This document shows positions 1 to 62,563 of a stretch of 64,000 nt of DNA, piece by piece. Every line of letters starts with the position of its first letter. The stretch's first letter is position 1. The translations under genes were made by a program, and so were the position numbers. The notes under the pieces are model-generated. The model did no database searches. It was not told the origin of the DNA and saw only the letters and a program-made list of their open reading frames with translations. Source of the stretch: Cytophagaceae bacterium (GTDB taxonomy: Bacteria; Bacteroidota; Bacteroidia; Cytophagales; Cytophagaceae); assembly GCA_025455005.1 (NCBI GenBank), contig JALONH010000005.1:1-64000 (forward strand). Direction: 5' to 3'.

Positions 1-94
1 TCTTAAATCGTGGATAATAAGACTTGAATGTGTCCTAATTTTCCATTAATTTCAAGAGTGTGTCTGAAGGGACGAATGACCATTCCAGGCACAC
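1..94. other. left edge, no gene assigned
   Basis: I see no complete gene. One + frame is open from the window edge to a TAA at 47-49 and could be the last codons of a gene that lies mostly outside, but 15 codons are too few to judge. Confidence 0.2.
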
Positions 95-224
95 ACAGCA
101 CCTACCCAAAAGTGGCGGTTCAGTTGTTAAATCGAGCTTTGTGCTTCTATCAAAGTTTCTGCTTGGTTGACAGTGAAGTGCTTCGAAATCGCCACCTTCG
201 GGTAGCTGCAAAACGTTACATGCA
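95..224 (+). repeat. attC-like imperfect palindrome E1 (class A)
   Basis: A long imperfect inverted repeat lies before the GapS4-like genes. The left arm at 98-117 (GCACCTACCCAAAAGTGGCG) pairs with the right arm at 190-209 with only a few mismatches; about 70 bases separate them. The right side is closely similar to the repeat at 2306-2443: both carry TTGACAGT, then TGCT-CGAAATC, GCCACC, TAGCT and AA-CGTTA in order. It ends in GTTACATGCA (215-224), whose exact reverse complement opens the next repeat at 2306-2315. Such complementarity between the two ends of a unit is typical of integron cassettes. No integrase is visible, so 'attC-like' is an inference. Confidence 0.6.
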
Positions 225-256
225 ATTTTAAAAAAACTGAACAATACTAATAAATT

Positions 257-1192
257 ATGGGAGAATGGTCTAAATCAATTGGCGAAAAGGGTGAAAAAAT
301 TGTAAAATTTATATTTGAGGATATATTAAATTACAATTCACTTCAAGAGAACAATTCAATAAATTGCAATAGAGGAACAAAGCATAAAGATCCTTCTGCA
401 AAAAACAATAAAACCACACATGGAATTGACGGATTAGTAACTTACAAATGTCCTTTGGAAGATTACACTTTAGATATTGGTGTTATTTCATCTAAATATA
501 TTGGAGGTGAATATCCTAATTACCCTTCTACTCTTTTTAAATCTCACATAAAAGATTTAGCATATACATTGGAATGCTTTAATTATTCCAAAGAAAAAAG
601 TAATCTAAATCAAAGCTTTACCGGAGTTAATAAGACTGATATTTTTGGAATATTAGTTTGGTTATCGAACACAAGTCCAATAAATTTTAGTTTAGCGTCT
701 ATTGTATCTAATGTTCAAATTGAAAACGACTTAGTTTTTGATAAAATTATATTATTAGATAATAATAAAGTTAACTTTCTATACGAAAGTATTTTTAGAA
801 CTAAAGAGAATTTTGGAGTAGCAAATGTTGATTTTGTATATCATAATTCAGGTTTAAATTACACATCAATACATGAAAATTCATTCGGTAAAATATTTCC
901 ATTAAATTATCTATATTCTGATATAATTCCTTTACGTATCGAAAATGGAAAGGACATTGAATTGAGAATTTTTATAAACGATGATTTTTCAGAAACACAA
1001 TTTTCTCAAATTCTAAACTTTGCTAAGAATTTCGACCATCTTAATTCTATAGATAAAACAGTTTTATATTTCAAAACATATGATTATTTAACAAATGACA
1101 ATTCGATAAAACAAATGTTATCGAATTTCTCTACTTATGTTTTAAATGAAAATTTAATAGTAAAAAAATTTCCGTCTGACTTTAGAAATTAA
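257..1192 (+). CDS. gapS4a: GapS4a-like defence protein, PD-(D/E)xK-type nuclease
   Basis: This 311-residue protein resembles the first gene of the GAPS4 two-gene anti-phage/anti-plasmid system. I recognised it from memory of the family pattern: an MGEWSK-type start, then GExGE, HGID and SxK. The probable nuclease core is E10/E13 in the first helix, D58 (HGID) and K80 (SSK); the usual acidic residue before xK is a serine here. The middle part (about 90-150), with FKSHIKDLAYTLECF and GVNKTDIFGILVWL, also fits the family. It begins 32 bp after repeat E1 and is followed after 5 bp by the partner gene, so the two should be co-transcribed. There is no signal peptide or membrane segment, so it should be cytoplasmic. 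Codon use is very AT-rich. Confidence 0.65.
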   Translation: MGEWSKSIGEKGEKIVKFIFEDILNYNSLQENNSINCNRGTKHKDPSAKNNKTTHGIDGLVTYKCPLEDYTLDIGVISSKYIGGEYPNYPSTLFKSHIKDLAYTLECFNYSKEKSNLNQSFTGVNKTDIFGILVWLSNTSPINFSLASIVSNVQIENDLVFDKIILLDNNKVNFLYESIFRTKENFGVANVDFVYHNSGLNYTSIHENSFGKIFPLNYLYSDIIPLRIENGKDIELRIFINDDFSETQFSQILNFAKNFDHLNSIDKTVLYFKTYDYLTNDNSIKQMLSNFSTYVLNENLIVKKFPSDFRN

Positions 1193-1197
1193 GAAAT

Positions 1198-2304
1198 ATG
1201 AATAAAGATATACTTCCTCAAGGTGATTCCATCAGACAATTACTTGTAAAATCAAATATCACAAACGCTAATATCAATTCATTACTTAGAGAAAAAGGTG
1301 TTTTCTTAGGTCAAAATCAAAAAAACAACTCAGTTCCTTTAATTATGAAAAGTATAATTAGTCCTAAAGATTTTATTGAATTGTATGAAACACAAAAGAC
1401 AAAAGAAGAAACAGTAAAATATAGAACTTCTTCTATCAATTGTAAAAGTGATTTCGATTTTCAAGAAGTAATAGGAAACAATATAGATATAAATGCTTTA
1501 ATAAAAGAAAAATATACATATAGACCTAACTATTCAGTAGTTGGCAATCCTAATTTTTATTTTGAAGATGAATTTACAGCAGTATTTGAATATCAAATTG
1601 AAAGAGAAAATCTATTAGATGATTGGACAAATAACAAAACCTATCATAAAGGTGCAATTACATTAAAAAAGATATCAGAAAATGATATTCAAATATCTGT
1701 TCAGCAAGATTCAACGTCAAAAGAAACATTTGAAGTTAATAACATATTATTACAAGCTTTAAAAGAGCAAATGTTGACAAAATCAATTATTAAATCAAAT
1801 GATGACATTATATCAGTAAGATTTAATCATTTTGACAATTCGACAAGAATAAAGTTTTTTTACTCATTCATAAGTAATTTTACGATTTACCTAGACTTTA
1901 AATCTATTACTGATATAGATTTATATCTTGATGAAAGTGTTGAATCTCATGAAGATGTAAAACTGTTTTTAGATGAAATAGACAATCTTAAACTTAGTGG
2001 AAAAGGTTTGCAAAAACATGTTCTTATTAATAAACAAGAATATTATCCAAAACTTATTTTCGGAGCCGTGAAATTTAAATATATATTATCATTTAATGGG
2101 ATACAAGGTAGTGTCGTTGTAAATCTTGGATTTCCAGATTATGTAAAATCTAAAGATGAAAATGCTGACTTTCAAATGTCAATTGAAATAATTTTAAGTC
2201 GTGAAGATAAAAATTCAAACACCGAAAATAAGATTAGAAAAAAACTTTTAGAATACTTTGAGAAGAAAAAAGTAGAAAGCTACAATAAATTTAAAACAAT
2301 ATAA
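1198..2304 (+). CDS. gapS4b: GapS4b-like defence partner protein
   Basis: This 368-residue protein matches the GapS4b pattern as I remember it: an N-terminus with LLPQGD-type sequence (here ILPQGDSIRQLL), then a serine/isoleucine segment, REKGVF, and VPLI...SPKDFIELYE around residues 28-65. No catalytic motif is evident. In the family it works with GapS4a, and the pair is needed for defence; its biochemical role is not clear to me. It lies 5 bp downstream of gapS4a. Its stop (2302-2304) is one base before the repeat at 2306, so gene and repeat form one compact unit. It is cytoplasmic, with no signal peptide. The assignment rests on motif memory plus the pairing, not on a search. Confidence 0.65.
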   Translation: MNKDILPQGDSIRQLLVKSNITNANINSLLREKGVFLGQNQKNNSVPLIMKSIISPKDFIELYETQKTKEETVKYRTSSINCKSDFDFQEVIGNNIDINALIKEKYTYRPNYSVVGNPNFYFEDEFTAVFEYQIERENLLDDWTNNKTYHKGAITLKKISENDIQISVQQDSTSKETFEVNNILLQALKEQMLTKSIIKSNDDIISVRFNHFDNSTRIKFFYSFISNFTIYLDFKSITDIDLYLDESVESHEDVKLFLDEIDNLKLSGKGLQKHVLINKQEYYPKLIFGAVKFKYILSFNGIQGSVVVNLGFPDYVKSKDENADFQMSIEIILSREDKNSNTENKIRKKLLEYFEKKKVESYNKFKTI

Positions 2305-2305
2305 C

Positions 2306-2443
2306 TGCATGTAACAAGCGTTTAGCTCAATGGCGGGTGTAGTGGTTAATTAAACATTCTACTTAGCATCAACTTTTGTGGTGTATTGACAGTTTTGTGC
2401 TCCGAAATCCGCCACCATTTGTTAGCTATAAACCGTTAAAAGC
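2306..2443 (+). repeat. attC-like imperfect palindrome E2 (class A)
   Basis: It opens with TGCATGTAAC (2306-2315), the exact reverse complement of 215-224 on the other side of the gapS4 pair. The left arm (2311-2336: TAAC, GCGTTTA, GCT, CAA, TGGCGG in order) pairs in the same order with the right arm (2409-2437: CCGCCA, TTG, AGC, TAAACC, GTTA), with unpaired bases between blocks. That interrupted pairing is the layout of integron attC sites. The right half is strongly similar to E1. The core GTTA at 2435-2438 would be the entry point of the next unit. Confidence 0.6.
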
Positions 2444-2484: not shown

Positions 2485-4008
2485 ATGAAAGTATTGCTTG
2501 ATACAAACATTATCATTCACAGAGAAGCCAGTAAGATTTACAACCTCGACATTGGACAACTATTCAATTGGCTCGACAAACTAAAATACGACAAGTACAT
2601 TCATCCATTGACAATTCAGGAGTTAAACCGGTATAAAGACCAAAGCTCTTTGAAAACAATGAATATCAAAATCGAAAGTTACAATCAGTTAAAGCATCAA
2701 GCTCCGCTAAGTAACACTGTAAAACAAGTAAGCCGGCAAATTGATAGTCAAGAAAACGACATCAATGACACACAAATCTTAAATGAAGTTTATGAAAATA
2801 GAGTTGATATTCTGATTTCTGAGGATAAAAAAATACACACGAAAGCAAAACTCTTAGGAATTGGCGATAGAGTTTTTCGTATTCAGACATTTTTAGAAAA
2901 GGCAACAGCAGAAAATCCCGAATTAGTAACACATAAAGTTTTAGCAGTAAAAAAAGTTGACTTTGCAGAGGTTGATCTGAAAGATAGTTTTTTCGACAGT
3001 TTTAGAAGTGACTACGCTGAGTTCGACAAATGGTTTAATAGCAAGGCAGAACAACCATGCTATGTATGTTACAGCGATAATCAACTGACTGCATTCTTAT
3101 TTATTAAAATTGAAAAGACAGGAGAAGAAAGTTATGCTGACATCACTCCTATTTTTAAGCCTAAGAAACGTCTGAAAATCGGAACTCTTAAAGTAACAGG
3201 AAATGGCTACAAAATTGGGGAGCGTTTCTTAAAAACAATCTTTGAAAATGCTATTCTGTTCAAGGTTGAAGAAATTTATGTAACTATTTTTGACAAAAGG
3301 CCAGAACAAGAGCAACTCATTGAAATGCTCGAAGAATGGGGCTTTAAAAAATATGGAATTAAGACTACCCCAAACGGAGACGAACTTGTTTATGTAAGAG
3401 AGTTTAGCAAAAACCTACCTGTAAACATTGAAAATCCAAAACTTACATTTCCTTTCTTTTCAAGAGAGACAGATAAATATTTAATAAGGATAGAGCCACA
3501 GTATCATACAGAACTGTTCCCAGACAGCATAAATACAAGAGAAGATAAGGCAAAATATACTGAGAACGAACCGCACAGAAACAGAATTAGTAAAGTATAT
3601 ATTTCTCATTCACCTGATAGATACTTAAAGTCAGGAGACATTGTGTTAATTTATCGTATTGGCGAAACATCACCTAAGACATACTCAAGCACTGTAACTA
3701 CAATTTGCATAGTAGAAAGTGTTAAAAACAATTTTAAGGACTTTGACGATTTTTTCAATAGTTGTAATAGACGGACAATGATTTCTAAAGAAGATTTAAA
3801 AACAAAGTGGTGGGAAAAATTTCCTAAATACAAACCTTTTATAATCAACTTCTTGTATGCTCATTCATTACCTACACCCAAGCCGACACTTAGTGATTTG
3901 ATTAAATTAAAAATATTCGCAGACCCAATGAGTTTACCAAAAGGTTTTGCTAAATTGACTAATGAGCAGTTTAACGATTTAATTAAATTTGCGTATACTA
4001 AGAAATAA
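2485..4008 (+). CDS. PIN nuclease-GNAT acetyltransferase-PUA-like fusion
   Basis: A three-domain protein of 507 residues. Residues 1-150 form a PIN domain with the full acidic set: D6 (LLDTN), E46 (TIQEL), D95 (INDTQIL) and D114 (ISED). PIN domains are metal-dependent RNases, often toxins. Residues about 175-310 look like a GNAT acetyltransferase: GNGYKIGERFL would be the acetyl-CoA loop and LEEWGFKKYG the last strand-helix. The C-terminal part (about 330-507) has a PUA/ASCH-like pattern around YLKSGDIVLIYR, a fold that often binds modified RNA or nucleotides. The ASCH gene follows after 4 bp, so the two form an operon. The combination suggests an RNA-targeting toxin-antitoxin or defence unit; this is inference. 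Confidence 0.65.
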   Translation: MKVLLDTNIIIHREASKIYNLDIGQLFNWLDKLKYDKYIHPLTIQELNRYKDQSSLKTMNIKIESYNQLKHQAPLSNTVKQVSRQIDSQENDINDTQILNEVYENRVDILISEDKKIHTKAKLLGIGDRVFRIQTFLEKATAENPELVTHKVLAVKKVDFAEVDLKDSFFDSFRSDYAEFDKWFNSKAEQPCYVCYSDNQLTAFLFIKIEKTGEESYADITPIFKPKKRLKIGTLKVTGNGYKIGERFLKTIFENAILFKVEEIYVTIFDKRPEQEQLIEMLEEWGFKKYGIKTTPNGDELVYVREFSKNLPVNIENPKLTFPFFSRETDKYLIRIEPQYHTELFPDSINTREDKAKYTENEPHRNRISKVYISHSPDRYLKSGDIVLIYRIGETSPKTYSSTVTTICIVESVKNNFKDFDDFFNSCNRRTMISKEDLKTKWWEKFPKYKPFIINFLYAHSLPTPKPTLSDLIKLKIFADPMSLPKGFAKLTNEQFNDLIKFAYTKK

Positions 4009-4012
4009 GAAA

Positions 4013-4390
4013 ATGAAAGTTGTATTATCAATAAAACCAGAGTTTGCGTTCAAGATTTTTGACGGTACAAAGAAGTTTGAGTTTAGAAAATCAATATTCA
4101 AAAATGAGAATATAAAATCAGTCATTGTATATGCTTCTTCTCCTGTGCAACAAGTAATTGGTGAATTTGAAATTGACGAAGTTTTGAACTATGACCTTTC
4201 AACACTTTGGGATTTAACGCAAGAGCATTCTGGCATCAGCAAGGAATTTTATTACGACTACTTTGCAAATAAGAAACAAGGTTTTGCTATCAAAATTAAA
4301 AAGGCAAGAAAGTATAGAAAACCAAAATGTTTGAGAGAAGACTTTAATTTATCTCCACCACAATCATTTGCTTACTGGACAAATAAATGA
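4013..4390 (+). CDS. ASCH/PUA-like domain protein
   Basis: A 125-residue protein with the ASCH pattern: SIKPEFAFKIFDGTKKFEFRK at its start (a K/E/R-rich binding face on the first strand and helix), then IVYASSPVQQVIGEFEI and a C-terminal WxxT/Y-rich tail. ASCH domains are PUA-like folds thought to bind RNA or modified nucleosides. I chose the ATG at 4013, 4 bp after the upstream stop, because the ASCH strand begins right there; an upstream in-frame start at 3989 lies inside the previous gene. Coupled to the PIN-GNAT gene, it could be that protein's antitoxin or RNA-recognition partner (inference). Confidence 0.7.
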   Translation: MKVVLSIKPEFAFKIFDGTKKFEFRKSIFKNENIKSVIVYASSPVQQVIGEFEIDEVLNYDLSTLWDLTQEHSGISKEFYYDYFANKKQGFAIKIKKARKYRKPKCLREDFNLSPPQSFAYWTNK

Positions 4391-4581: not shown

Positions 4582-4825
4582 TATAACATTCCACGTTTAA
4601 TTGATATGTATCTACTTAGAGATGAATGTAATGAAAAGTATCGATTATTGAGGCGTCACCAATACGCTATTTTAAGCTAGATAGGACCAAACGGTTTTCA
4701 ATTGATACAATTTTAGAAGGTTGGTGAATTGAGAATGATACACCAAGCTAACTAATATATTGTATTGAAAGTAGGTTTAGAATATAATATTATTAACAAA
4801 GAAGACAAAGAAAATTAAAAATACA
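4582..4825 (+). other. gene-free spacer with one class B arm
   Basis: GAGGCGTCACCAATACG at 4649-4665 matches the right arm of the class B palindromes (GCGGCGTCACCAACACG), but no left arm is found. CACCAA here could pair with TTGGTG at 4721-4726. AAGCTAAC lies at 4745-4752. The stretch just before the ATG at 4826 is AT-rich, and I see no clear promoter. Confidence 0.3.
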
Positions 4826-5548
4826 ATGGCAGAGTTTTTAACTACAAACGGTACATCTCATAATATTGAAAATATAATCATTGAAGCTAAAGCAAAGCTT
4901 ATTCTTGTTTCTCCCTACCTACAAATTTCGAAAACATTTTTCGAGCGTCTTAAAGACGCATCTAATAAAAACGTATCAATAAAAATCATTTATGGGAAAG
5001 ACGAACTAAAACCAAACGAGAGGAATTCACTAGCCGAATTAAAAAATGTCGAACTTTATTTTTTTGAAAATCTTCATGCTAAATGTTATTTCAACGAAAC
5101 AAAAATGGTAATTACTTCGATGAATATGTATGAGTTTTCTGAGAAAAATAATCGTGAAATGGGTGTTCTAATTAATCGAAATATAGACAAAGAGCTTTTT
5201 GATAAAGCAGTTGCAGAAACATATTCAATTATTCAATCAGCGGAACAAGTTTCATTACGTAAAGTTGACAGACCAATTTTTACTAACAAAAAACAACAAG
5301 ACAATAATCAAAATAAATATAAGAGAATAATTAGAGGTTATTGCATAAGATGTGAGAATAGGATTGACTATAATCCTACAAGACCTTATTGCGGTGATTG
5401 TTTTTCGATTTGGTCTCAATATGAAAATCCGGACTATCAAGAAAATGTTTGTCATAGATGTGGAGAATACGAAATGACAAGTATGAATAAGCCTCAATGC
5501 TATCATTGCTATACAGAACATCAACAAGAATTAAGAAGAATGATGTAA
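4826..5548 (+). CDS. phospholipase D-like nuclease with two Cys4 zinc knuckles
   Basis: A 240-residue protein. Residues 1-135 are a single PLD-type domain: the catalytic motif is H84-A-K86 followed by TSMN (97-100), close to the HxK...N signature, and EMGVLI ends the domain as in PLD nucleases. One HxK motif per chain implies a dimer. Residues 170-230 carry two zinc knuckles: C173/C176/C189/C192 and C209/C212/C225/C228. These probably bind DNA or RNA. It stands alone between palindromic spacers, on the same strand as its neighbours. A restriction or defence nuclease is likely from context, but the target is unknown. There is no signal peptide. Confidence 0.7.
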   Translation: MAEFLTTNGTSHNIENIIIEAKAKLILVSPYLQISKTFFERLKDASNKNVSIKIIYGKDELKPNERNSLAELKNVELYFFENLHAKCYFNETKMVITSMNMYEFSEKNNREMGVLINRNIDKELFDKAVAETYSIIQSAEQVSLRKVDRPIFTNKKQQDNNQNKYKRIIRGYCIRCENRIDYNPTRPYCGDCFSIWSQYENPDYQENVCHRCGEYEMTSMNKPQCYHCYTEHQQELRRMM

Positions 5549-5566
5549 CATAAACCCTTCTACTTA

Positions 5567-5710
5567 AAGTTGGCAACTTGTGCCTACTAAATCCATCAGT
5601 CTGCGACCGTCTTTTACTTTATAATAAGGTAAAAACAATTAAACTTATCAATTACCGTAGTGGCGCAAGTTGGCAACTTTTGCCTAGTAAATCCATCGGT
5701 CTGCGACTGT
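5567..5710 (+). repeat. 44-bp direct repeat, two copies exactly 100 bp apart
   Basis: Copies at 5567-5610 and 5667-5710 share 40 of 44 bases. Each starts with the palindrome AAGTTGGCAACTT, then TGCCTA-TAAATCCATC-GTCTGCGAC-GT. A partial inverted relative (GCGCAAGTTGG-AACTT read on the minus strand) lies at 10752-10783, so this family brackets the block with the TIR, unknown and DUF488 genes. Confidence 0.6.
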
Positions 5711-6100
5711 AAGGCTGCGCGCTGCAAGAAAAAAGTTTCCCAGGTGGTGCGGCCATCAGACGCCGACCTGCCACAGATATTTGTTAACTCCGTTTTTACT
5801 TACTACATAACTATTACCAGTTACTGGTTTTCTCCTTTCTTTTGTCTTGTTACAAAAGAAACTAAAAATCAAGGCTGGTGAAGTCTGCTGCCTTCTTATT
5901 AATGGCGCATCCTTCAAAGGCCGGATGATAAAGTGCTAAATTATAGAGTTGGCGGAGAGAGCGCAATTGAGTATCTTAGATATCAGGAATAAAATCAAAA
6001 GCTCTATAATAGATTTGGTAGGTGGTCGTTGCTCTTGAGAAGCTCACAATCACGGATTCTGACGTGCTTAAGAAACAAACTATAAACACCTACCTCGGCA
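5711..6100. other. noncoding stretch with several hairpins
   Basis: No gene is supported. It holds CAGGT...ACCTG at 5741-5770; a perfect 10-bp hairpin TTTCTTTTGT/ACAAAAGAAA at 5836-5861, of a kind I recall as scattered in Bacteroidota genomes; TTATAGAG (5941-5948) with its complement CTCTATAA (6002-6009); and GGTAGGTG (6017-6024) with CACCTACC (6087-6094). TGGCGGAGAGAGCG (5950-5963) is, on the minus strand, like the 3' end of a tRNA-Ser. Confidence 0.4.
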
Positions 6101-6130
6101 AAAAAGCCTCCAAGTGATTGGGGGCTTTTT
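6101..6130. terminator. bidirectional rho-independent terminator
   Basis: AAAAAGCCTCC and GGGGGCTTTTT pair over 11 bp (one G-T) around an 8-base loop. The A- and T-runs allow termination in both directions. It lies 75 bp before the TIR gene and would shield that gene from read-through. Confidence 0.7.
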
Positions 6131-6164
6131 ACGCTTTTTGAAAAGAAGTGGAAATGGGGTAAAT

Positions 6165-6172
6165 TAGGTTTG
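6165..6172 (+). promoter_or_regulatory. possible -7 promoter element of the TIR gene
   Basis: TAGGTTTG fits TAnnTTTG, 33 bp before the ATG. TTTG at 6137-6140 precedes it by 24 bp, longer than the usual 19, so the -33 part is uncertain. It sits just after the terminator at 6101-6130, where the gene's own promoter would be expected. Confidence 0.45.
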
Positions 6173-6204
6173 TATATAAATTATTATAGACAATTAAGCC
6201 TTCT

Positions 6205-7473
6205 ATGGAAATAACTACTCAAAATCAACTTTTAGATTTATTAATAAAATACAATAATGAAGGATCACCTATTTACAAAATATATTACGATCTTCACTTA
6301 AGTGGAACTAATCAAAAATATAGCGAACTACTTGAAATTAATAAAGCCATTTTTAAGAATTATACTTTTCAAGAAATAAGATTTAGTGGTTTCAAATTTA
6401 AAAATTGTCAATTTAATAATTGTCAATTCAGAAACATCGATTTCTCAGCTTGCGAATTTGAATCATGCCAATTCAATAATATCGACATGAGTTCCTCTGG
6501 TTTTTTTGAAAGTAGATTCGAAAACGTAAAAATAATAAAATCAAAACTCTCCCTAATACATTTTGCTGATGTAGAGATATCAAAAACTAATTTTGAATCT
6601 TGTCATGAATTAATGGATATATATTGGGGTGGAACCTCTTTCAAAAACGTAAATTTTAATGAATGTTTTGTTAATTATAACAGATTTACAGATTCATATA
6701 GAGATCTTGAACCAACAATTGAATTCAATAGTTGTCTATTGACGAGAAATTATTTTTCTTTTTTAAAACTAACTACTGTAAAGTTTATATCGTCTGTAAT
6801 GAATTTAAATAGTTTTCAAAACTGTATACTGTCTAGGGATTCATTTCAATTTATTCCAAACTCTAAAGGAACGGAATTCAATTCAGTTGATTTTACTACT
6901 ATAGCTGAATCCGAGATTTTAAATCAGAATGATCTTTATAATTTATTTGGAATTACTGCACCTGATATTAAAGATTATTTATATGGATTGACAAATAAGA
7001 TAAATTTTCAAACTGTATTTATTTCATACAGTACAGAAAATTTAGATTTCGCAAAAAAATTAAATAATGCTCTTATTGACAAAGGTATTATTACTTTTTT
7101 ATGGGAAAAAGATGCTCCAGGAGGAAAGCAACTTAAGAATATCATGAAAGATAATATAAAAAAATACGACAGAGTTCTTTTTATTGCTTCAGAAGATTCT
7201 TTAAAGAGCCCTGCTTGTCAATTTGAACTCACAGAAGCAAGACTAAAACAGGATAAGTATTGGAAAGATGTTTATTTCCCAATAACTATAGATGACTTCA
7301 TTTTTAAAATCCAAAAAGAAGACATTAGACCTCGAGAAGATGCAGAAGAATACTGGAAAAATATTCTTGGATTAAAAGAATTCAACATTCTCGACTATTC
7401 TAGTTTTCTGAAGGGGAATAATGAAAACTTTGAAAAGGAAATATTTAAATTAATTAAGGATTTAAAAAAATAA
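6205..7473 (+). CDS. pentapeptide-repeat-TIR domain fusion
   Basis: A 422-residue protein. Residues about 50-235 are pentapeptide-like repeats (runs such as FKNCQFNNCQFRNIDF with F/L/C at every fifth place), which fold as a quadrilateral beta-helix. Residues 268-422 are a TIR domain: FISYS at 272-276, then FAKKL and GI-TFLWEKD. The motif SPACQFE ends in E341, the position of the catalytic glutamate in NAD+-cleaving TIRs. I infer an NADase effector that depletes NAD+ on infection, with the pentapeptide part acting as sensor or assembly platform. No partner gene adjoins it; it seems to be a one-gene unit closed by palindrome E6. There is no signal peptide. Confidence 0.75.
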   Translation: MEITTQNQLLDLLIKYNNEGSPIYKIYYDLHLSGTNQKYSELLEINKAIFKNYTFQEIRFSGFKFKNCQFNNCQFRNIDFSACEFESCQFNNIDMSSSGFFESRFENVKIIKSKLSLIHFADVEISKTNFESCHELMDIYWGGTSFKNVNFNECFVNYNRFTDSYRDLEPTIEFNSCLLTRNYFSFLKLTTVKFISSVMNLNSFQNCILSRDSFQFIPNSKGTEFNSVDFTTIAESEILNQNDLYNLFGITAPDIKDYLYGLTNKINFQTVFISYSTENLDFAKKLNNALIDKGIITFLWEKDAPGGKQLKNIMKDNIKKYDRVLFIASEDSLKSPACQFELTEARLKQDKYWKDVYFPITIDDFIFKIQKEDIRPREDAEEYWKNILGLKEFNILDYSSFLKGNNENFEKEIFKLIKDLKK

Positions 7474-7484
7474 TTTCTGCACCC

Positions 7485-7576
7485 CGCCCGATTCGGTGTT
7501 TAGCCGCTCACTCAGGTGTATAGCAAGGAGTATAGTCTTCTGCGGCGTCACCAACACGTAATCTTCCTAGAAAGTT
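7485..7576 (+). repeat. attC-like palindrome E6 (class B)
   Basis: The left arm CGGTGTTTAGCCGC (7494-7507) pairs with GCGGCGTCACCAACACG (7542-7558). It is nearly identical over about 90 bases to E8 at 10629-10723, and its arms resemble E7 at 8639-8720. It begins 11 bp after the TIR stop and ends in AAAGTT, before the next gene. Confidence 0.6.
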
Positions 7577-7611
7577 ATTAAATAGTCATAACGATAATTG
7601 TAAATTCTTAA

Positions 7612-8160
7612 ATGCAAGATTTGATTCATACGAACCTGAAAGATTATTTTTTCGAAATGAAACAATTATTTCACGAGCAAAGTGGTTTAAATTCTTTGAC
7701 AGAAATATTAGGTACTTGTGAGTTTAGTGAAACTAGACCTTATTTAACTAGACGCAAATTGACGCCTCATGATAAAAGATTTACCTCCATTGAGCTTGTT
7801 TATGAAACTCCCAAAGAAGTCAGAAAAATTTGTTGGTATTTGGATGTTACTATTTCTGAGTTAATTGATTACTTTGGGGAACCCAGATTTCACTATTCAC
7901 CGCATGGTAGCGCAACGCTAATTGGCTTCTTTGATTCCGAAAATCAATTTACAGGATTTGAAACCATGTATTCAGGAAGTGTAAGAGAAAAAAAAGGCAA
8001 ATATGAATGTTATAGTGAAGATGGAAAATTTGAGATAAAAGAAAATTTGAAGGTTTCTTATATATCTTATGATATTGAAACAATGAAAAATAAAAGGGAA
8101 ATTCCTACAACAAAGGTTGATAATAAAATTCCGAATTGGTTGAAAAAACTGTGGGCATAA
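7612..8160 (+). CDS. protein of unknown function
   Basis: I do not recognise this 182-residue protein. It has no signal peptide and no membrane segment, and looks like a mixed alpha/beta cytoplasmic protein. Features to search with are YFGEPRFHYSPHGSATLIGF around residues 85-110 and a basic, Trp-containing C-terminus (NWLKKLWA). It is the first of two genes between palindromes E6 and E7; the second encodes a small membrane protein. A soluble-plus-membrane pair within one cassette-like unit could be an effector with a membrane partner, but nothing in the sequence proves it. Confidence 0.6.
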   Translation: MQDLIHTNLKDYFFEMKQLFHEQSGLNSLTEILGTCEFSETRPYLTRRKLTPHDKRFTSIELVYETPKEVRKICWYLDVTISELIDYFGEPRFHYSPHGSATLIGFFDSENQFTGFETMYSGSVREKKGKYECYSEDGKFEIKENLKVSYISYDIETMKNKREIPTTKVDNKIPNWLKKLWA

Positions 8161-8198
8161 ATCGTCGATTTCATCTGACTTTTAATTTTAATAATCTC

Positions 8199-8603
8199 AT
8201 GAATATTTTCTTCAAATTATTATCTAACGATAAAGTACAGCGTATTTTATATTCTATCGCTTTATTATTTTGGTTGATACTTTGGATTAACGATTGGGAA
8301 AGAAATGATTCAATAAGTTCTATGGGTATTAAATATTTTTGGTTGGGTCTTTTTCCAACATTGTTACTAGTTCTTCAAGTATTATTTAATAATCAATACG
8401 CATGGCTTAGTATTCTTTCCTTATTCCTTCTTTATACTATTTTGACTGTGTATAATCTCTTTTTAATGATTATGGTTGATTCAGAGCGCATGTATGTTAA
8501 AGGAGTATATATTAACTTTGAACAGATATTAAGTTTGGTGTTTATAGTCATTATTTTAACTTTGATAAATCTAGTGCTGTTTAAAATGAAACCTAATAAT
8601 TAA
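8199..8603 (+). CDS. small integral membrane protein of unknown function
   Basis: A 134-residue protein with about four hydrophobic segments: residues 16-31, 44-62, 66-87 and 107-128. I chose the ATG at 8199, 38 bp after the upstream stop. An in-frame ATG at 8136 would overlap the previous gene by 25 bp and add 21 residues before the first membrane helix. I do not recognise a family. Conserved-looking features are the WINDWERND loop after the first helix and a Lys-rich C-terminus. It shares a unit with the unknown soluble protein before it and may anchor it or act on the membrane (inference). Confidence 0.55.
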   Translation: MNIFFKLLSNDKVQRILYSIALLFWLILWINDWERNDSISSMGIKYFWLGLFPTLLLVLQVLFNNQYAWLSILSLFLLYTILTVYNLFLMIMVDSERMYVKGVYINFEQILSLVFIVIILTLINLVLFKMKPNN

Positions 8604-8638
8604 CCACCAACCTTAATCCTTGCTAAAAAAGTTACCTT

Positions 8639-8720
8639 GCCCGAGTTGGTGTTTTGCCACGCAGGCTTGTGTCGTGAATGAGATGTAAATAATTGTGGCG
8701 TCACCAATCAATATCTTTAT
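8639..8720 (+). repeat. attC-like palindrome E7 (class B)
   Basis: GTTGGTGTTTTGCCAC (8645-8660) pairs with GTGGCGTCACCAATC (8695-8709). The arms match those of E6 and E8, but the loop is different. Confidence 0.55.
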
Positions 8721-8743
8721 ATCTTAATTATGTAACATTGAGT

Positions 8744-8815
8744 TGTTGGTGATGCGGTAATGTTGTGTCAATTATAACGAGAGTGGAGAGCACCGCTAAC
8801 GCCAAAAACGCTATG
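8744..8815 (+). repeat. second palindrome after E7
   Basis: GGTGATGCGGT (8748-8758) pairs imperfectly with ACCGCTAACGCC (8792-8803). AACGCCAAAAACGCTATGGG follows, comparable with GCAAAACGTTACATG at the end of E1. It may be a third type of unit boundary; the evidence is weaker than for E6-E8. Confidence 0.3.
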
Positions 8816-8859
8816 GGTCGTATTGTTGCTAAATAATCGGAATTAAAGGTCAAAATAAG

Positions 8860-8867
8860 TACCTTTG
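8860..8867 (+). promoter_or_regulatory. -7 promoter element directly before the DUF488 gene
   Basis: TACCTTTG matches TAnnTTTG exactly and ends only 4 bases before the ATG at 8872. Transcription would start at or very near the A of ATG, giving a leaderless or nearly leaderless mRNA. A -33 TTTG is not evident. Confidence 0.5.
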
Positions 8868-8871
8868 CACT

Positions 8872-9756
8872 ATGTTTTATAGACGAAAAATTATACTTGC
8901 TTTAATGCAACTTTTTGAAGGTAATCTGGAAAAAATCCGTTTACAAAAATTGTTATTTCTATTTGCTCAAAAGCAGGAAAATAAAGCGTATGATTTTGTT
9001 CCATACCGATTTGGTTGTTACTCCTATTCTGCCAATGCAGATTTAACAGCTATGGCAAATAAAGGTATTTTATCTGAAACCAACAGCCATTTTAAAAGTT
9101 TAGACAAAACAGATTATTTAAAGTCGCTCAAAGAAACCGACCGTAAACAATTATTGGAAATTAAAAAATTGTACGGTAGCATGAGTGCTAACAAGTTGAT
9201 GGAACATACTTACGTCAATTTTCCTTATTGGGCAACCAAAAGCGAAAAAGCGGAAAGCATTTTAACAAAACATGAACTTGAAAAAGTAAAGAATAGTATC
9301 CCTGTCAATAACAAAACCATATTATTTACGATTGGGTACGAAGGTATATCGCTTGAAGAATATTTAAACCGTCTGTTAAAAAATGACGTGAAAATTTTAG
9401 TGGATGTTCGTAACAATCCGTTGAGTATGAAATACGGCTTTAGTAAAAGCCAATTGAAACGCTATTGTGAGAGTTTGGGAATACAATACATACACTTTCC
9501 CGAAGTAGGAATACAATCCGAACAAAGACAGGAATTAAATACACAAACGGATTACGATAAATTGTTTGCCGTTTACCGAAAAAATAACTTGACAAAGACG
9601 GTTTCTACGCAAAACGCCATACTAAACTTATTAATACAACATAAACGCATTGCATTAACTTGTTTTGAAGCCAACATTTGCCAATGCCACCGTAAACACT
9701 TAGCGGAAGCCATTGAAACGCTTCCAGGCTTTGAATACGAAGTAAAACATATCTGA
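8872..9756 (+). CDS. SocA/Panacea-like-DUF488 fusion protein
   Basis: A 294-residue protein. The N-terminal half (1-130) has the RLQKLLFL...F-PYRFGCYSYSAN pattern of the SocA/DUF4065 (Panacea) type, found in antitoxins and toxin-neutralising fusions. The C-terminal half (148-294) is DUF488: FTIGYEGISLEEYLNRL, VDVRNNP, and near the end CFEANICQCHR with the family's cysteine and CHR triad. DUF488 proteins are of unknown activity but are common in defence islands. The next gene starts 49 bp downstream on the same strand, and I recall this DUF488-plus-partner pair in other Bacteroidota. A defence or stress role is inferred from context. Confidence 0.65.
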   Translation: MFYRRKIILALMQLFEGNLEKIRLQKLLFLFAQKQENKAYDFVPYRFGCYSYSANADLTAMANKGILSETNSHFKSLDKTDYLKSLKETDRKQLLEIKKLYGSMSANKLMEHTYVNFPYWATKSEKAESILTKHELEKVKNSIPVNNKTILFTIGYEGISLEEYLNRLLKNDVKILVDVRNNPLSMKYGFSKSQLKRYCESLGIQYIHFPEVGIQSEQRQELNTQTDYDKLFAVYRKNNLTKTVSTQNAILNLLIQHKRIALTCFEANICQCHRKHLAEAIETLPGFEYEVKHI

Positions 9757-9805
9757 AACTGCGAAGCAATCATCGAGACCATAAAAATAAAAGACTTCGA
9801 GATAA

Positions 9806-10618
9806 ATGGCATTAACAAAAGTTCTGATAACTGTAAAAACCTACCCTGCTATTTCAAGTAAGTATGATGAATTGGTTTGTACTGCAGGATTTCGTGAAGA
9901 TGGCACTTGGATACGTCTTTACCCTGTTCCGTTCCGAAAAAAATCATATAACGAACAATACAAAAAATATGATTGGATTGAAGTTGATTTGGTAAAAAAC
10001 ACAAGCGATTTCCGTCCTGAAAGTTATCGACCTAAAAGTATTGACACAGAGATAAATGTAGTTGGACATATCGACACCAAAAGCAATTGGGAAGAACGCA
10101 AGAAAATCTGCTTAGGGAAAATTTATTATAACCTAACAGAATTGATAGCAGAGGCCAAGGACAAAAATATTTGCACATCATTGGCAGTATTTAAACCAAC
10201 AGAAATTTTGGATTTCTACGCAGAACCAGTTGAAAGAGAATGGGACAAAGACAAATTAGCTAAGTTGAACCAACTCAATTTATTTGAAACTAATCAAGAA
10301 GGTAAATTTGATGTTGTTCAGAAACTACCATACAAATTCAAGTTTAAAATAATCGACAATCAAGGAAAACAGAGTAATATGATGATTGAAGATTGGGAAA
10401 CAGGTCAGCTTTATTGGAATTGTCATGCTCGACACGAAGGAGACGAACAAAAAGCAATTGCAGATGTGAGAAAAAAATATTTTGACGACTTTGCTAAAAC
10501 AAAAGACTTGCATTTTTTTTTAGGGACAACCCAAGCACATCATCACGTTTCATTAAATCCGTTTATGATTATTGGAACATTTCAACCAAAAATTGACCTA
10601 CAAGGAAAGTTGTTTTAG
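9806..10618 (+). CDS. conserved partner of the DUF488 protein
   Basis: A 270-residue soluble protein of no named function. It starts with KVLITVKTYPAISSKYDELVC, then TAGFREDGTWIRLYPVPFR, a pattern I remember next to DUF488 genes. Near the C-terminus, FFLGTTQAHHHVSLNPFMIIG has a three-histidine cluster that could bind metal or nucleotide. The GTW-IRLYP strand-turn and overall beta content would suit an OB/PUA-like nucleic-acid fold, but that is a guess. It shares the unit with the DUF488 gene, and palindrome E8 begins 11 bp after its stop. Confidence 0.6.
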   Translation: MALTKVLITVKTYPAISSKYDELVCTAGFREDGTWIRLYPVPFRKKSYNEQYKKYDWIEVDLVKNTSDFRPESYRPKSIDTEINVVGHIDTKSNWEERKKICLGKIYYNLTELIAEAKDKNICTSLAVFKPTEILDFYAEPVEREWDKDKLAKLNQLNLFETNQEGKFDVVQKLPYKFKFKIIDNQGKQSNMMIEDWETGQLYWNCHARHEGDEQKAIADVRKKYFDDFAKTKDLHFFLGTTQAHHHVSLNPFMIIGTFQPKIDLQGKLF

Positions 10619-10628
10619 CCCAATCCGC

Positions 10629-10723
10629 CCCCGTCCGAGTTGGTGTTTAGCCGCTCACTCAGGTGTATAGTAAGAAGTATAGTCTTTTGCGGCGTCACCA
10701 ACACGTACTCTTCCTAGAAAGTT
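10629..10723 (+). repeat. attC-like palindrome E8 (class B)
   Basis: GAGTTGGTGTTTAGCCGC (10637-10654) pairs with GCGGCGTCACCAACACG (10689-10705). Almost the whole element, loop included, is the same as E6 at 7485-7576, so the two could recombine and remove the 3.1 kb between them. Confidence 0.6.
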
Positions 10724-10949
10724 GGGATTTACAATCTGCATACACCCTTTTCTAGTACAAGTTACCAACTTGCGCCAAGTACGACACGGGTGAGTGTGAA
10801 GATTGGTAAAATCACCAACGAACTTTTAATCGAATCCTCCCCTTTTTTTAAATAATACCATACAATCCATAAAAACAACCACGAAAACAACATCACGGTC
10901 CTATACATTTGACTATTGAACTTAGTATTCTTAGTTATATGTCACTGTC
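10724..10949. other. right border of the island
   Basis: No gene. Nested pairing: ACACCC (10742-10747) with GGGTG (10788-10792), enclosing CAAGTT-ACC-AACTTG (10758-10772). This copy is related, in inverse orientation, to 5656-5687. TTGGTAAAATCACCAA at 10805-10820 is another small hairpin. Base composition changes to the more GC-rich core genes from about 10,950. Confidence 0.4.
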
Positions 10950-61749: not shown

Positions 61750-62563
61750 AGGAATGTTCATTATAATTCTCTGATTCTTTTTCTTTTTTAGCATAAATAT
61801 AAGCACTTACATAAATGCTTAGTTCATACAAAAATATCATGGGCAATGCCATTAATACTTGACTTAATATGTCGGGAGAAGGGGTTAAAACAGCCGCAAT
61901 AATAAAAATTACGACTAATGCATGTCTTCTGTAACTTCGCATAAACTGTGGCGTCATCAAACCTAAACTCGATAATGCATATACCACAACCGGTAATTGA
62001 AATATTAGACCTCCGCCTAATACCATCATGCACAACATGGAAATATAAGAGGAGATATCAATAAAGTTTTTTATACTTGGATCTATCTGGTAATTCAATA
62101 GGAAATTAATCGCTAAGGGCGACATGATGAAATATCCAAACACAACTCCTAAGAAAAACAAAAGCGAGATAAAAAAAACAATTCCCCGAATACTGGTGCG
62201 CTCATTCTTATGTAAAGCAGGAGCCACAAATTGCCATAATTCATAAACGATGTAAGGGAATGCAAACACAATTCCGGCTACAACGGACGCCAATAAATGC
62301 ATGGTAAACTGACCGGTCATCGTTCGACTGATTAAAGTGAACTCAAGTGTTTCAACGCAATAAGAAAAATAATCACATAGAACACGGAAAGTAATAAAGT
62401 CTGACTTGGTCGGTCCAAGTAATACCACCTGGTAAATCCACTTCATTTGAGTAAAGGCGACTATTGTCATTACAATAATCGCCAATACAGATCGTATGAT
62501 GTGTTTTCTTAATTCGTCCAGATGGTCCAAGAAGGACATATCTTTTTTCTCACTACCCGCCAC
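61742..62563 (-). CDS. tatC: Sec-independent protein translocase TatC
   Basis: 273 residues with six membrane helices. TatC recognises twin-arginine signal peptides and, with TatA, moves folded proteins across the inner membrane. It begins with MSFLDHLDELRKHIIRSVLA, the hallmark block; the long first loop and then FAFPYIVYELWQFVAPALHKNERTSIRG are also typical. A second hallmark, FFISLLFFLGVVFGYFIMSP, follows. tatA is not in the window. It lies 20 bp after glyA on the same strand, so glyA-tatC-rpiB look like one operon. Confidence 0.95.
   Translation of the reverse strand: MAGSEKKDMSFLDHLDELRKHIIRSVLAIIVMTIVAFTQMKWIYQVVLLGPTKSDFITFRVLCDYFSYCVETLEFTLISRTMTGQFTMHLLASVVAGIVFAFPYIVYELWQFVAPALHKNERTSIRGIVFFISLLFFLGVVFGYFIMSPLAINFLLNYQIDPSIKNFIDISSYISMLCMMVLGGGLIFQLPVVVYALSSLGLMTPQFMRSYRRHALVVIFIIAAVLTPSPDILSQVLMALPMIFLYELSIYVSAYIYAKKEKESENYNEHSYE

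What the first reader, a model, noticed from the sequence alone, without database searches (positions are those of the whole stretch)
215..2315. GapS4 unit has exactly complementary 10-base ends
GTTACATGCA at 215-224 precedes the gene pair, and its exact reverse complement TGCATGTAAC opens the next palindrome at 2306-2315, one base after the stop. In integron cassettes the start of the attC site at the 3' end of a cassette is complementary to the core at the cassette's 5' end, since both come from one site in the circular form. The core fits GTTRRRY except for one base. So this defence pair looks able to circularise and move as a unit.
Basis: partly seen in the sequence, partly recalled or inferred. 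Interest (0 to 1): 0.7.

Follow-up and report, generated by a model that had tools for sequence, protein, structure and literature searches.

The report
Integron-type cassette carrying GapS4 defence
A two-gene phage-defence system in a Bacteroidota genome is packaged as an integron-style gene cassette with the expected self-complementary ends, and the same unit sits with the same left boundary in an unrelated place in another genome, so it has moved as a unit, although no integron integrase was found in any of the three genomes where GapS4 is packaged this way.

Summary
In detail: GTTACATGCA (215-224) and its exact reverse complement (2306-2315) bracket gapS4a/gapS4b. Each belongs to a ~130-nt attC-type palindrome (89-221, 2309-2441) recognised by a covariance model built without the window (E 3e-17, 1.3e-11). 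In 27 of 35 cassettes from Bacteroidota arrays the two ends agree over 9-10 nt, against 2.6% of mismatched pairs; a second set of 79 behaves alike. Published work already says most integron cassettes self-pair over 9-11 nt; two class 1 cassettes tested here give 10 and 12. Two further gapS4 cassettes were found: in a Chryseobacterium bin the nucleotide homology starts exactly at base 215 with an unrelated left flank; in Flavobacterium hibernum a different core (GTTGGCAGAT) has its matching complement. Most other gapS4 loci are not cassettes. The integron reading is right. 'Able to move now' is weaker: no canonical IntI in this genome or the other two, and the upstream attC has a degenerate R'' box. 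The corrected unit is 216-2435. Defence genes in integron cassettes are known, so this is a new member of a known kind. Less expected: a Bacteroidota attC family whose hosts in the window's class lack IntI, with a fixed mismatch at position 11.

The parts
89..221 (+). Upstream attC-type site (P1); its R'' box is degenerate (CACAC where TAAC is expected), L''/L' arms intact (GCACCTACCC / GGGTAGCTGC), then AAAAC and the core
   Evidence: Covariance model R1, built without the window: 90.9 bits, E 3e-17; fold
215..224 (+). R' core and 5' end of the GapS4 cassette, GTTACATGCA; expected crossover between G215 and T216
   Evidence: Sequence; homology to L252 starts exactly at 215
257..1192 (+). gapS4a, anti-phage GapS4a family protein
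   Evidence: NF047933, 311 bits, cut-off 270
1198..2304 (+). gapS4b, anti-phage GapS4b family protein
   Evidence: NF047934, 397.6 bits, cut-off 300
2306..2315 (+). R'' end of the GapS4 cassette, TGCATGTAAC, exact reverse complement of 215-224; complementarity resumes for two bases beyond a mismatch at position 11 (A at 225 against C at 2305)
2309..2441 (+). Downstream attC-type site (P2) belonging to the GapS4 cassette, up to the R' core of the next cassette
   Evidence: Model R1: 64.8 bits, E 1.3e-11; fold
2435..2442 (+). R' core GTTAAAAG, start of the next cassette; expected crossover G2435/T2436
   Evidence: Sequence; finder
2485..4008 (+). PDC-M11A (PIN domain), candidate defence protein, first gene of the next cassette
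   Evidence: PADLOC 688 bits; Pfam PIN_4
4013..4390 (+). PDC-M11B (ASCH domain), partner gene; no recognisable attC follows it, so this second cassette is open-ended or decayed
   Evidence: PADLOC 174 bits; Pfam ASCH; no further model R1 match below E 1 in the window

Best explanation
Bases 216-2435 are an integron-type gene cassette: the gapS4a-gapS4b pair followed by its own attC site. In the circular cassette the 5' end (TTACATGCA) is joined to the G at the end of the 3' attC, so the core R' and the inverse core R'' are pairing partners and must be complementary; the 10-base match is that R'/R'' stem. A tyrosine recombinase of the integron type (IntI) is inferred to have inserted it by acting on the folded bottom strand. 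Shown: attC anatomy, the general complementarity rule, the same unit at a second unrelated location with an exact left boundary. Inferred: the enzyme, the circular form, and that movement came from an integrase supplied by another element or host. In this genome the array is a cluster of attC sites without an integrase (CALIN) and is probably not self-mobile.
For: Model R1 from 30 Bacteroidota sites, window excluded, finds both palindromes and nothing else below E 1 in 64 kb. The stems are supported by covariation: 93.5% of cells paired against 66.6% shuffled, 145 two-sided changes against 48. Site pattern: 35 hits in 395 genomes of the phylum against 1 for the reversed pattern. End complementarity in 35 cassettes: mean run 8.3 against 4.4 for mismatched pairs, 0 of 2000 permutations; 79 cassettes from another collection: 7.7 against 4.6. 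Another cassette in the same genome (contig C39) obeys it: GTTAGCAGCA, run 10. The 85%-identical unit in L252 aligns from 215 to 2338 with an unrelated left flank. F. hibernum gapS4: attC just upstream found by the model (E 2.2e-9) and matching 10-nt ends. A real IntI lies 4-7 kb from four sites of this family in genome G102. Class 1 control cassettes: runs 12 and 10. Literature: pairing of 9-11 nt, beyond the 7-nt R boxes, for most cassettes (PMC2727003). In the circular form the folded ends gain about 5-6 kcal/mol over the present linear junction.
Against: No IntI over the cut-off in G000 or in the other two gapS4-cassette genomes. Across 395 genomes the site family does not track IntI: 0 of 10 site-bearing genomes in the window's class and 7 of 19 elsewhere have one, against about 105 of 297 genomes elsewhere overall. 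The upstream attC R'' is degenerate; the F. hibernum right attC is reduced to ACAC; the L252 copy has an inexact 3' end (rc GCTACATTGCA) and no attC on its left. An empty site was not found. The spacer lengths (1 nt and 5 nt) are more lopsided than in textbook attC sites. IntegronFinder's own model could not be run.
Confidence: 0.93

Rival explanations
1. A transposon-like unit with 10-bp terminal inverted repeats (IS- or MITE-like); the 10-mers are its ends and a transposase acts on them.
For: The 10-mers are exact inverted repeats flanking a gene pair, and the unit is found elsewhere.
Against: The right 10-mer is not at the edge of the mobile unit: homology to L252 continues 23 bases past it into the palindrome (215-2338), and at the family level the unit ends about 120 bases after the right 10-mer. 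The 10-mer sequence differs from cassette to cassette, unlike transposon ends. No target-site duplication or transposase was seen.
Confidence: 0.02
2. Genuine attC-bounded cassettes, but moved in the class Bacteroidia by a recombinase other than canonical IntI (XerC/D or another tyrosine recombinase).
For: None of 10 site-bearing genomes of the window's class has an IntI over the cut-off, and 1 of 98 sampled genomes of the class has one. Several site-bearing genomes carry partial-scoring tyrosine recombinases, one on the same contig as an array (G283:C19).
Against: A canonical IntI sits near the same site family in G102, and IntI-adjacent arrays in other classes use sites with a similar ending (CAAACC or AGACC before GTTA in L345, L346). 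CALINs without an integrase are common in general (PMC9024848).
Confidence: 0.12
3. Chance: two unrelated hairpins, for instance terminators, that happen to match over 10 bases.
For: In AT-rich DNA a 10-base inverted repeat between flanks of this size arises in 2% of shuffles.
Against: Both hairpins match the attC model at E 1e-10 or better; only 0.25-0.5% of mismatched cassette ends reach 10; two further gapS4 cassettes exist elsewhere.
Confidence: 0.01

Closest known systems
Integron gene cassettes with attC sites (class 1 integrons, Vibrio superintegron)
   Same: Short unit, gene(s) plus 3' palindrome, core G/TTA, R'' complementary to R' of the same cassette over 9-11 nt, as described for most cassettes (PMC2727003; control).
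   Different: No integrase nearby; spacers between R and L boxes are 1 and 5 nt; a fixed mismatch at position 11 of the terminal stem that the class 1 cassettes tested here do not share.
CALIN (cluster of attC sites lacking an integron-integrase)
   Same: Two attC sites within 2.3 kb, no IntI in the genome; further single sites on contigs C39 and C10.
   Different: IntegronFinder 2.0 reported only one complete integron in Bacteroidetes (Salinibacter) besides earlier In0 (PMC9024848), so this family seems under-recorded there; the contig begins at window base 1, so the array may be longer.
Defence-carrying integron cassettes (Darracq 2025, Kieffer 2025, as summarised in PMC12409362)
   Same: Compact one- or two-gene anti-phage systems carried as cassettes.
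   Different: Those are Vibrio or mobile integrons with an integrase; here Bacteroidota, GapS4, no integrase.
GapS4 anti-phage system
   Same: Both proteins over the NCBIfam cut-offs.
   Different: Most GapS4 loci examined are not cassettes; only 3 of the loci seen here are. The original description (Vibrio islands) is from memory; no paper on it was in the library.

Membership tests
Integron gene cassette / attC site | Palindromic site with R''-L''...L'-R' arrangement ending in a G/TT core | tested here: met
   P2 complete, P1 with degenerate R''
Integron gene cassette / attC site | R'' at the 3' end complementary to R' at the 5' end of the same cassette, 7 nt or more | tested here: met
   10 nt in the window; run of 9-10 in 27 of 35 cassettes and of 8-10 in 52 of 79
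Integron gene cassette / attC site | Unit boundaries coincide with core sites when the cassette is found elsewhere | tested here: met
   L252 homology begins exactly at 215; right end less exact because that attC has diverged
Integron gene cassette / attC site | Extrahelical bases that set strand choice | tested here: inconclusive
   Lopsided spacers (1 and 5 nt) and a bottom-strand T.G at position 11 were seen; a classical extrahelical G in L'' was not consistently identified
Integron gene cassette / attC site | Excision and integration by IntI | not testable with these tools
   Needs an experiment
Complete integron | intI gene with attI next to the array | tested here: not met
   No IntI over the cut-off in G000; so not filed as a complete integron
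CALIN | At least two attC sites close together with no integrase | tested here: met
   P1 and P2 2.2 kb apart, no IntI; IntegronFinder itself not run
GapS4 system | gapS4a and gapS4b adjacent, both over the family cut-offs | tested here: met
   anti-phage activity not tested
Transposon with terminal inverted repeats | Repeats at the extreme ends of the unit, the same in all copies | tested here: not met
   Right repeat is internal to the unit and the repeat differs between cassettes

The most novel reading that the evidence does not exclude
Bacteroidia carry a shared pool of attC-bounded cassettes, some with defence genes, in genomes that have no integron integrase of their own; the pool is fed by integrases from other classes or from mobile elements. 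Its attC sites carry a strand mark that I have not seen described for other attC sites: after the 9-10 nt R'/R'' stem a fixed position 11 that mispairs as A.C on the top strand but forms T.G on the bottom strand, followed by renewed pairing to about position 15, making the bottom-strand end helix the more stable one in 49 of 52 cassettes.
Probability: 0.35. Interest if true: 0.65.

Novelty: new member of a known kind. Interest (0 to 1): 0.45.

Why it matters
It extends the recently recognised role of integron cassettes as carriers of phage defence to Bacteroidota, a phylum where a survey of complete genomes found almost no integrons, and shows GapS4 moving as a cassette. It also offers a testable family of sites: a natural pair of gapS4 cassettes with one exact shared boundary, and an attC family whose hosts in this class lack the enzyme.

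Tried and rejected
Rfam: no match in the window. The second palindrome family in the window (GTTGGTGACGCCGC ... GCGGCTAAACACCAAC) was considered as another cassette boundary and set aside: its exact motif was found only in this genome among 39 searched, and its arms have the opposite orientation to attC. TIGR02249 matches in G000 are background tyrosine recombinases, since all 14 control genomes ring too. Empty target site for L252: no homologous flank in plasmids or in 99 related genomes. Plasmid search for GapS4b found only 25%-identical relatives. A five-sequence GapS4b alignment was too diverse for the scan; a two-sequence one worked. Contig ends of G000 were compared in the hope of joining C10 to C30: only part of the attC itself is shared. 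IntI-containing contigs of seven genomes did not show this exact site type beside IntI with the strict finder; G102 was found later with the model. The GapS4 discovery paper was not in the library.

Full report
Observation. The 10-mer GTTACATGCA is at 215-224 and its exact reverse complement at 2306-2315; each occurs once in the 64 kb. Between them lie two genes that pass the NCBIfam cut-offs for GapS4a and GapS4b. One base separates the gapS4b stop from the right 10-mer.

What the 10-mers belong to. Each sits in a palindrome of about 130 nt. The upstream one ends ...GGGTAGCTGC-AAAAC-GTTACATGCA, the downstream one starts TGCATGTAAC-AAGCGTTTAGC... and ends ...TTAGCTATAAACC-GTTAAAAG. Searching 98 related genomes with AGCTRYAAAMCGTTA gave this motif in 11, and TAGCTGCAAAMCGTTA gave 35 hits in 395 genomes of the phylum against one for the reversed pattern. 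Most of the sites have a near-constant length (118-120 nt between TAAC and GTTA) and variable, co-varying arms. A covariance model of 30 such sites, with the window left out, finds the two window sites at E 3e-17 and 1.3e-11 and nothing else below E 1. In the whole source genome it finds four sites: the two here, one on contig C39 and one on C10.

The complementarity rule. Consecutive sites define cassettes. In 35 cassettes (the window's included) the 5' end and the reverse complement of the 3' end agree for 9-10 bases in 27; swapped pairs do so in 2.6%, and no permutation in 2000 reached the observed mean. A second set of 79 cassettes from IMG/VR contigs gives the same picture. The finder fixes GTT/AAC and nearly fixes position 4, so positions 5-10 carry the signal. 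A cassette on contig C39 of the same genome, not used in those counts, also matches over 10. In two class 1 integron cassettes of E. coli plasmid p1658/97 the same measure is 12 and 10, and Bouvier et al. state that for most cassettes self-pairing extends to 9-11 nt (PMC2727003). The window's 10 bases are therefore what an integron cassette should show.

Other gapS4 units. Fourteen further gapS4b loci came from a scan of 84,980 genomes, and five, some more distant, from the phylum sample (one of them is among the fourteen). Two are cassettes. L252 (Chryseobacterium bin, GapS4b 89% identical): nucleotide homology runs from window 215 to 2338 at 85%, starting exactly at the core; the left flank is unrelated and is not an attC, which fits insertion at a secondary site (inference); its 3' end is slightly decayed. 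L259 (Flavobacterium hibernum, 52%): a core GTTGGCAGAT right after an attC that the model finds (E 2.2e-9), with the exact complement ATCTGCCAAC after gapS4b, but the right attC is reduced to ACAC before the next core. The other loci show no attC and no such ends. So the gene pair is not tied to cassettes; this copy and two others are.

The enzyme. No IntI over the TIGR02249 cut-off is in this genome or in the other two. Of 395 sampled genomes 105 have one over the cut-off, but only one of the 98 in the window's own class (class counts made by hand from the lists; the class is Bacteroidia by inference, since contig G412:C9 has the same length as a Flavobacterium frigidimaris contig). None of 10 site-bearing genomes in that class has IntI, and 7 of 19 elsewhere do, about the background rate. 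In the complete genome G102 four sites of this family lie 4-7 kb from an IntI gene, and arrays near IntI in G157 and G350 use sites with a similar ending, CAAACC or AGACC before GTTA. The simplest account is an integron cassette pool that reaches this class without its integrase. The upstream site of the window also has a damaged R'' box, so excision of gapS4 from its present place would be impaired even with an integrase (inference).

An unplanned regularity. Position 11 of the cassette ends never matches: the 5' end has A in 78 of 79, the opposite base reads G in the same sense in 60 of 79, and pairing resumes at 12-15 (also mismatched in 35 of 35). On the bottom strand this is a T.G pair, on the top strand A.C. 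With DNA energy parameters the bottom-strand end helix is more stable in 49 of 52 cassettes, by 1.2 kcal/mol on average. The window and C39 cassettes show it; F. hibernum gapS4 has A against T there. The two class 1 cassettes do not share it. Whether it matters for strand choice is untested.

Contents and context. The next cassette carries PDC-M11A/B, a candidate defence pair, but no attC follows it. Proteins of other cassettes of this site family match PADLOC models for DRT3, AbiU, TmtA, a CBASS-type 4TM effector and several candidate systems; enrichment was not tested. Integron cassettes as carriers of defence are established for Vibrio and mobile integrons (PMC12409362).

Verdict. It is an ordinary integron-type cassette in anatomy, a new member of a known kind, made more interesting by its phylum, its cargo, the second copy with an exact shared boundary and the missing integrase.

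Noticed in passing
4629-4666, 7482-7576, 8640-8715, 10629-10723, 61948-61960; L284 (G000:C34 near 54382): A second palindromic repeat, GTTGGTG...GCCGC / GCGGC...CACCAAC, lies between several defence-like genes; its exact 15-base motif was found in no other genome of 39 searched. It looks like a genome-specific REP-like element, not attC.
   Followed up: partly
215-235 and 2298-2315, and about 110 other cassettes: Fixed mismatch at position 11 of the cassette end helix with pairing resuming after it; T.G on the bottom strand, A.C on the top.
   Followed up: partly
4826-10618: Further defence-like genes downstream: a PLD-domain protein with weak similarity to DrmC, a pentapeptide-TIR protein, and PDC-M19A/B (DUF488), mostly separated by the second repeat family.
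   Followed up: no
5567-5710: Two 44-nt direct repeats 100 nt apart (AAGTTGGCAACTT..TGCCTA.TAAATCCATC.GTCTGCGAC), with a related inverted copy at 10759-10777.
   Followed up: no
L132-L211 (IMG/VR contigs): At least 120 stretches of viral contigs carry this attC type, some with several cassettes in a row; phage carriage or mis-sorted bacterial contigs.
   Followed up: partly
L259:4611-4630: In F. hibernum the attC after gapS4b is reduced to ACAC between an intact R'' and the next core, as if the hairpin had been deleted.
   Followed up: partly
1-110: The contig starts inside an array next to a small hairpin (GTGTGTCTG...CAGGCACACAC), and the R'' box of the first attC is degenerate; contigs C10 and C39 also have sites within about 1.1 kb of a contig end.
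   Followed up: partly
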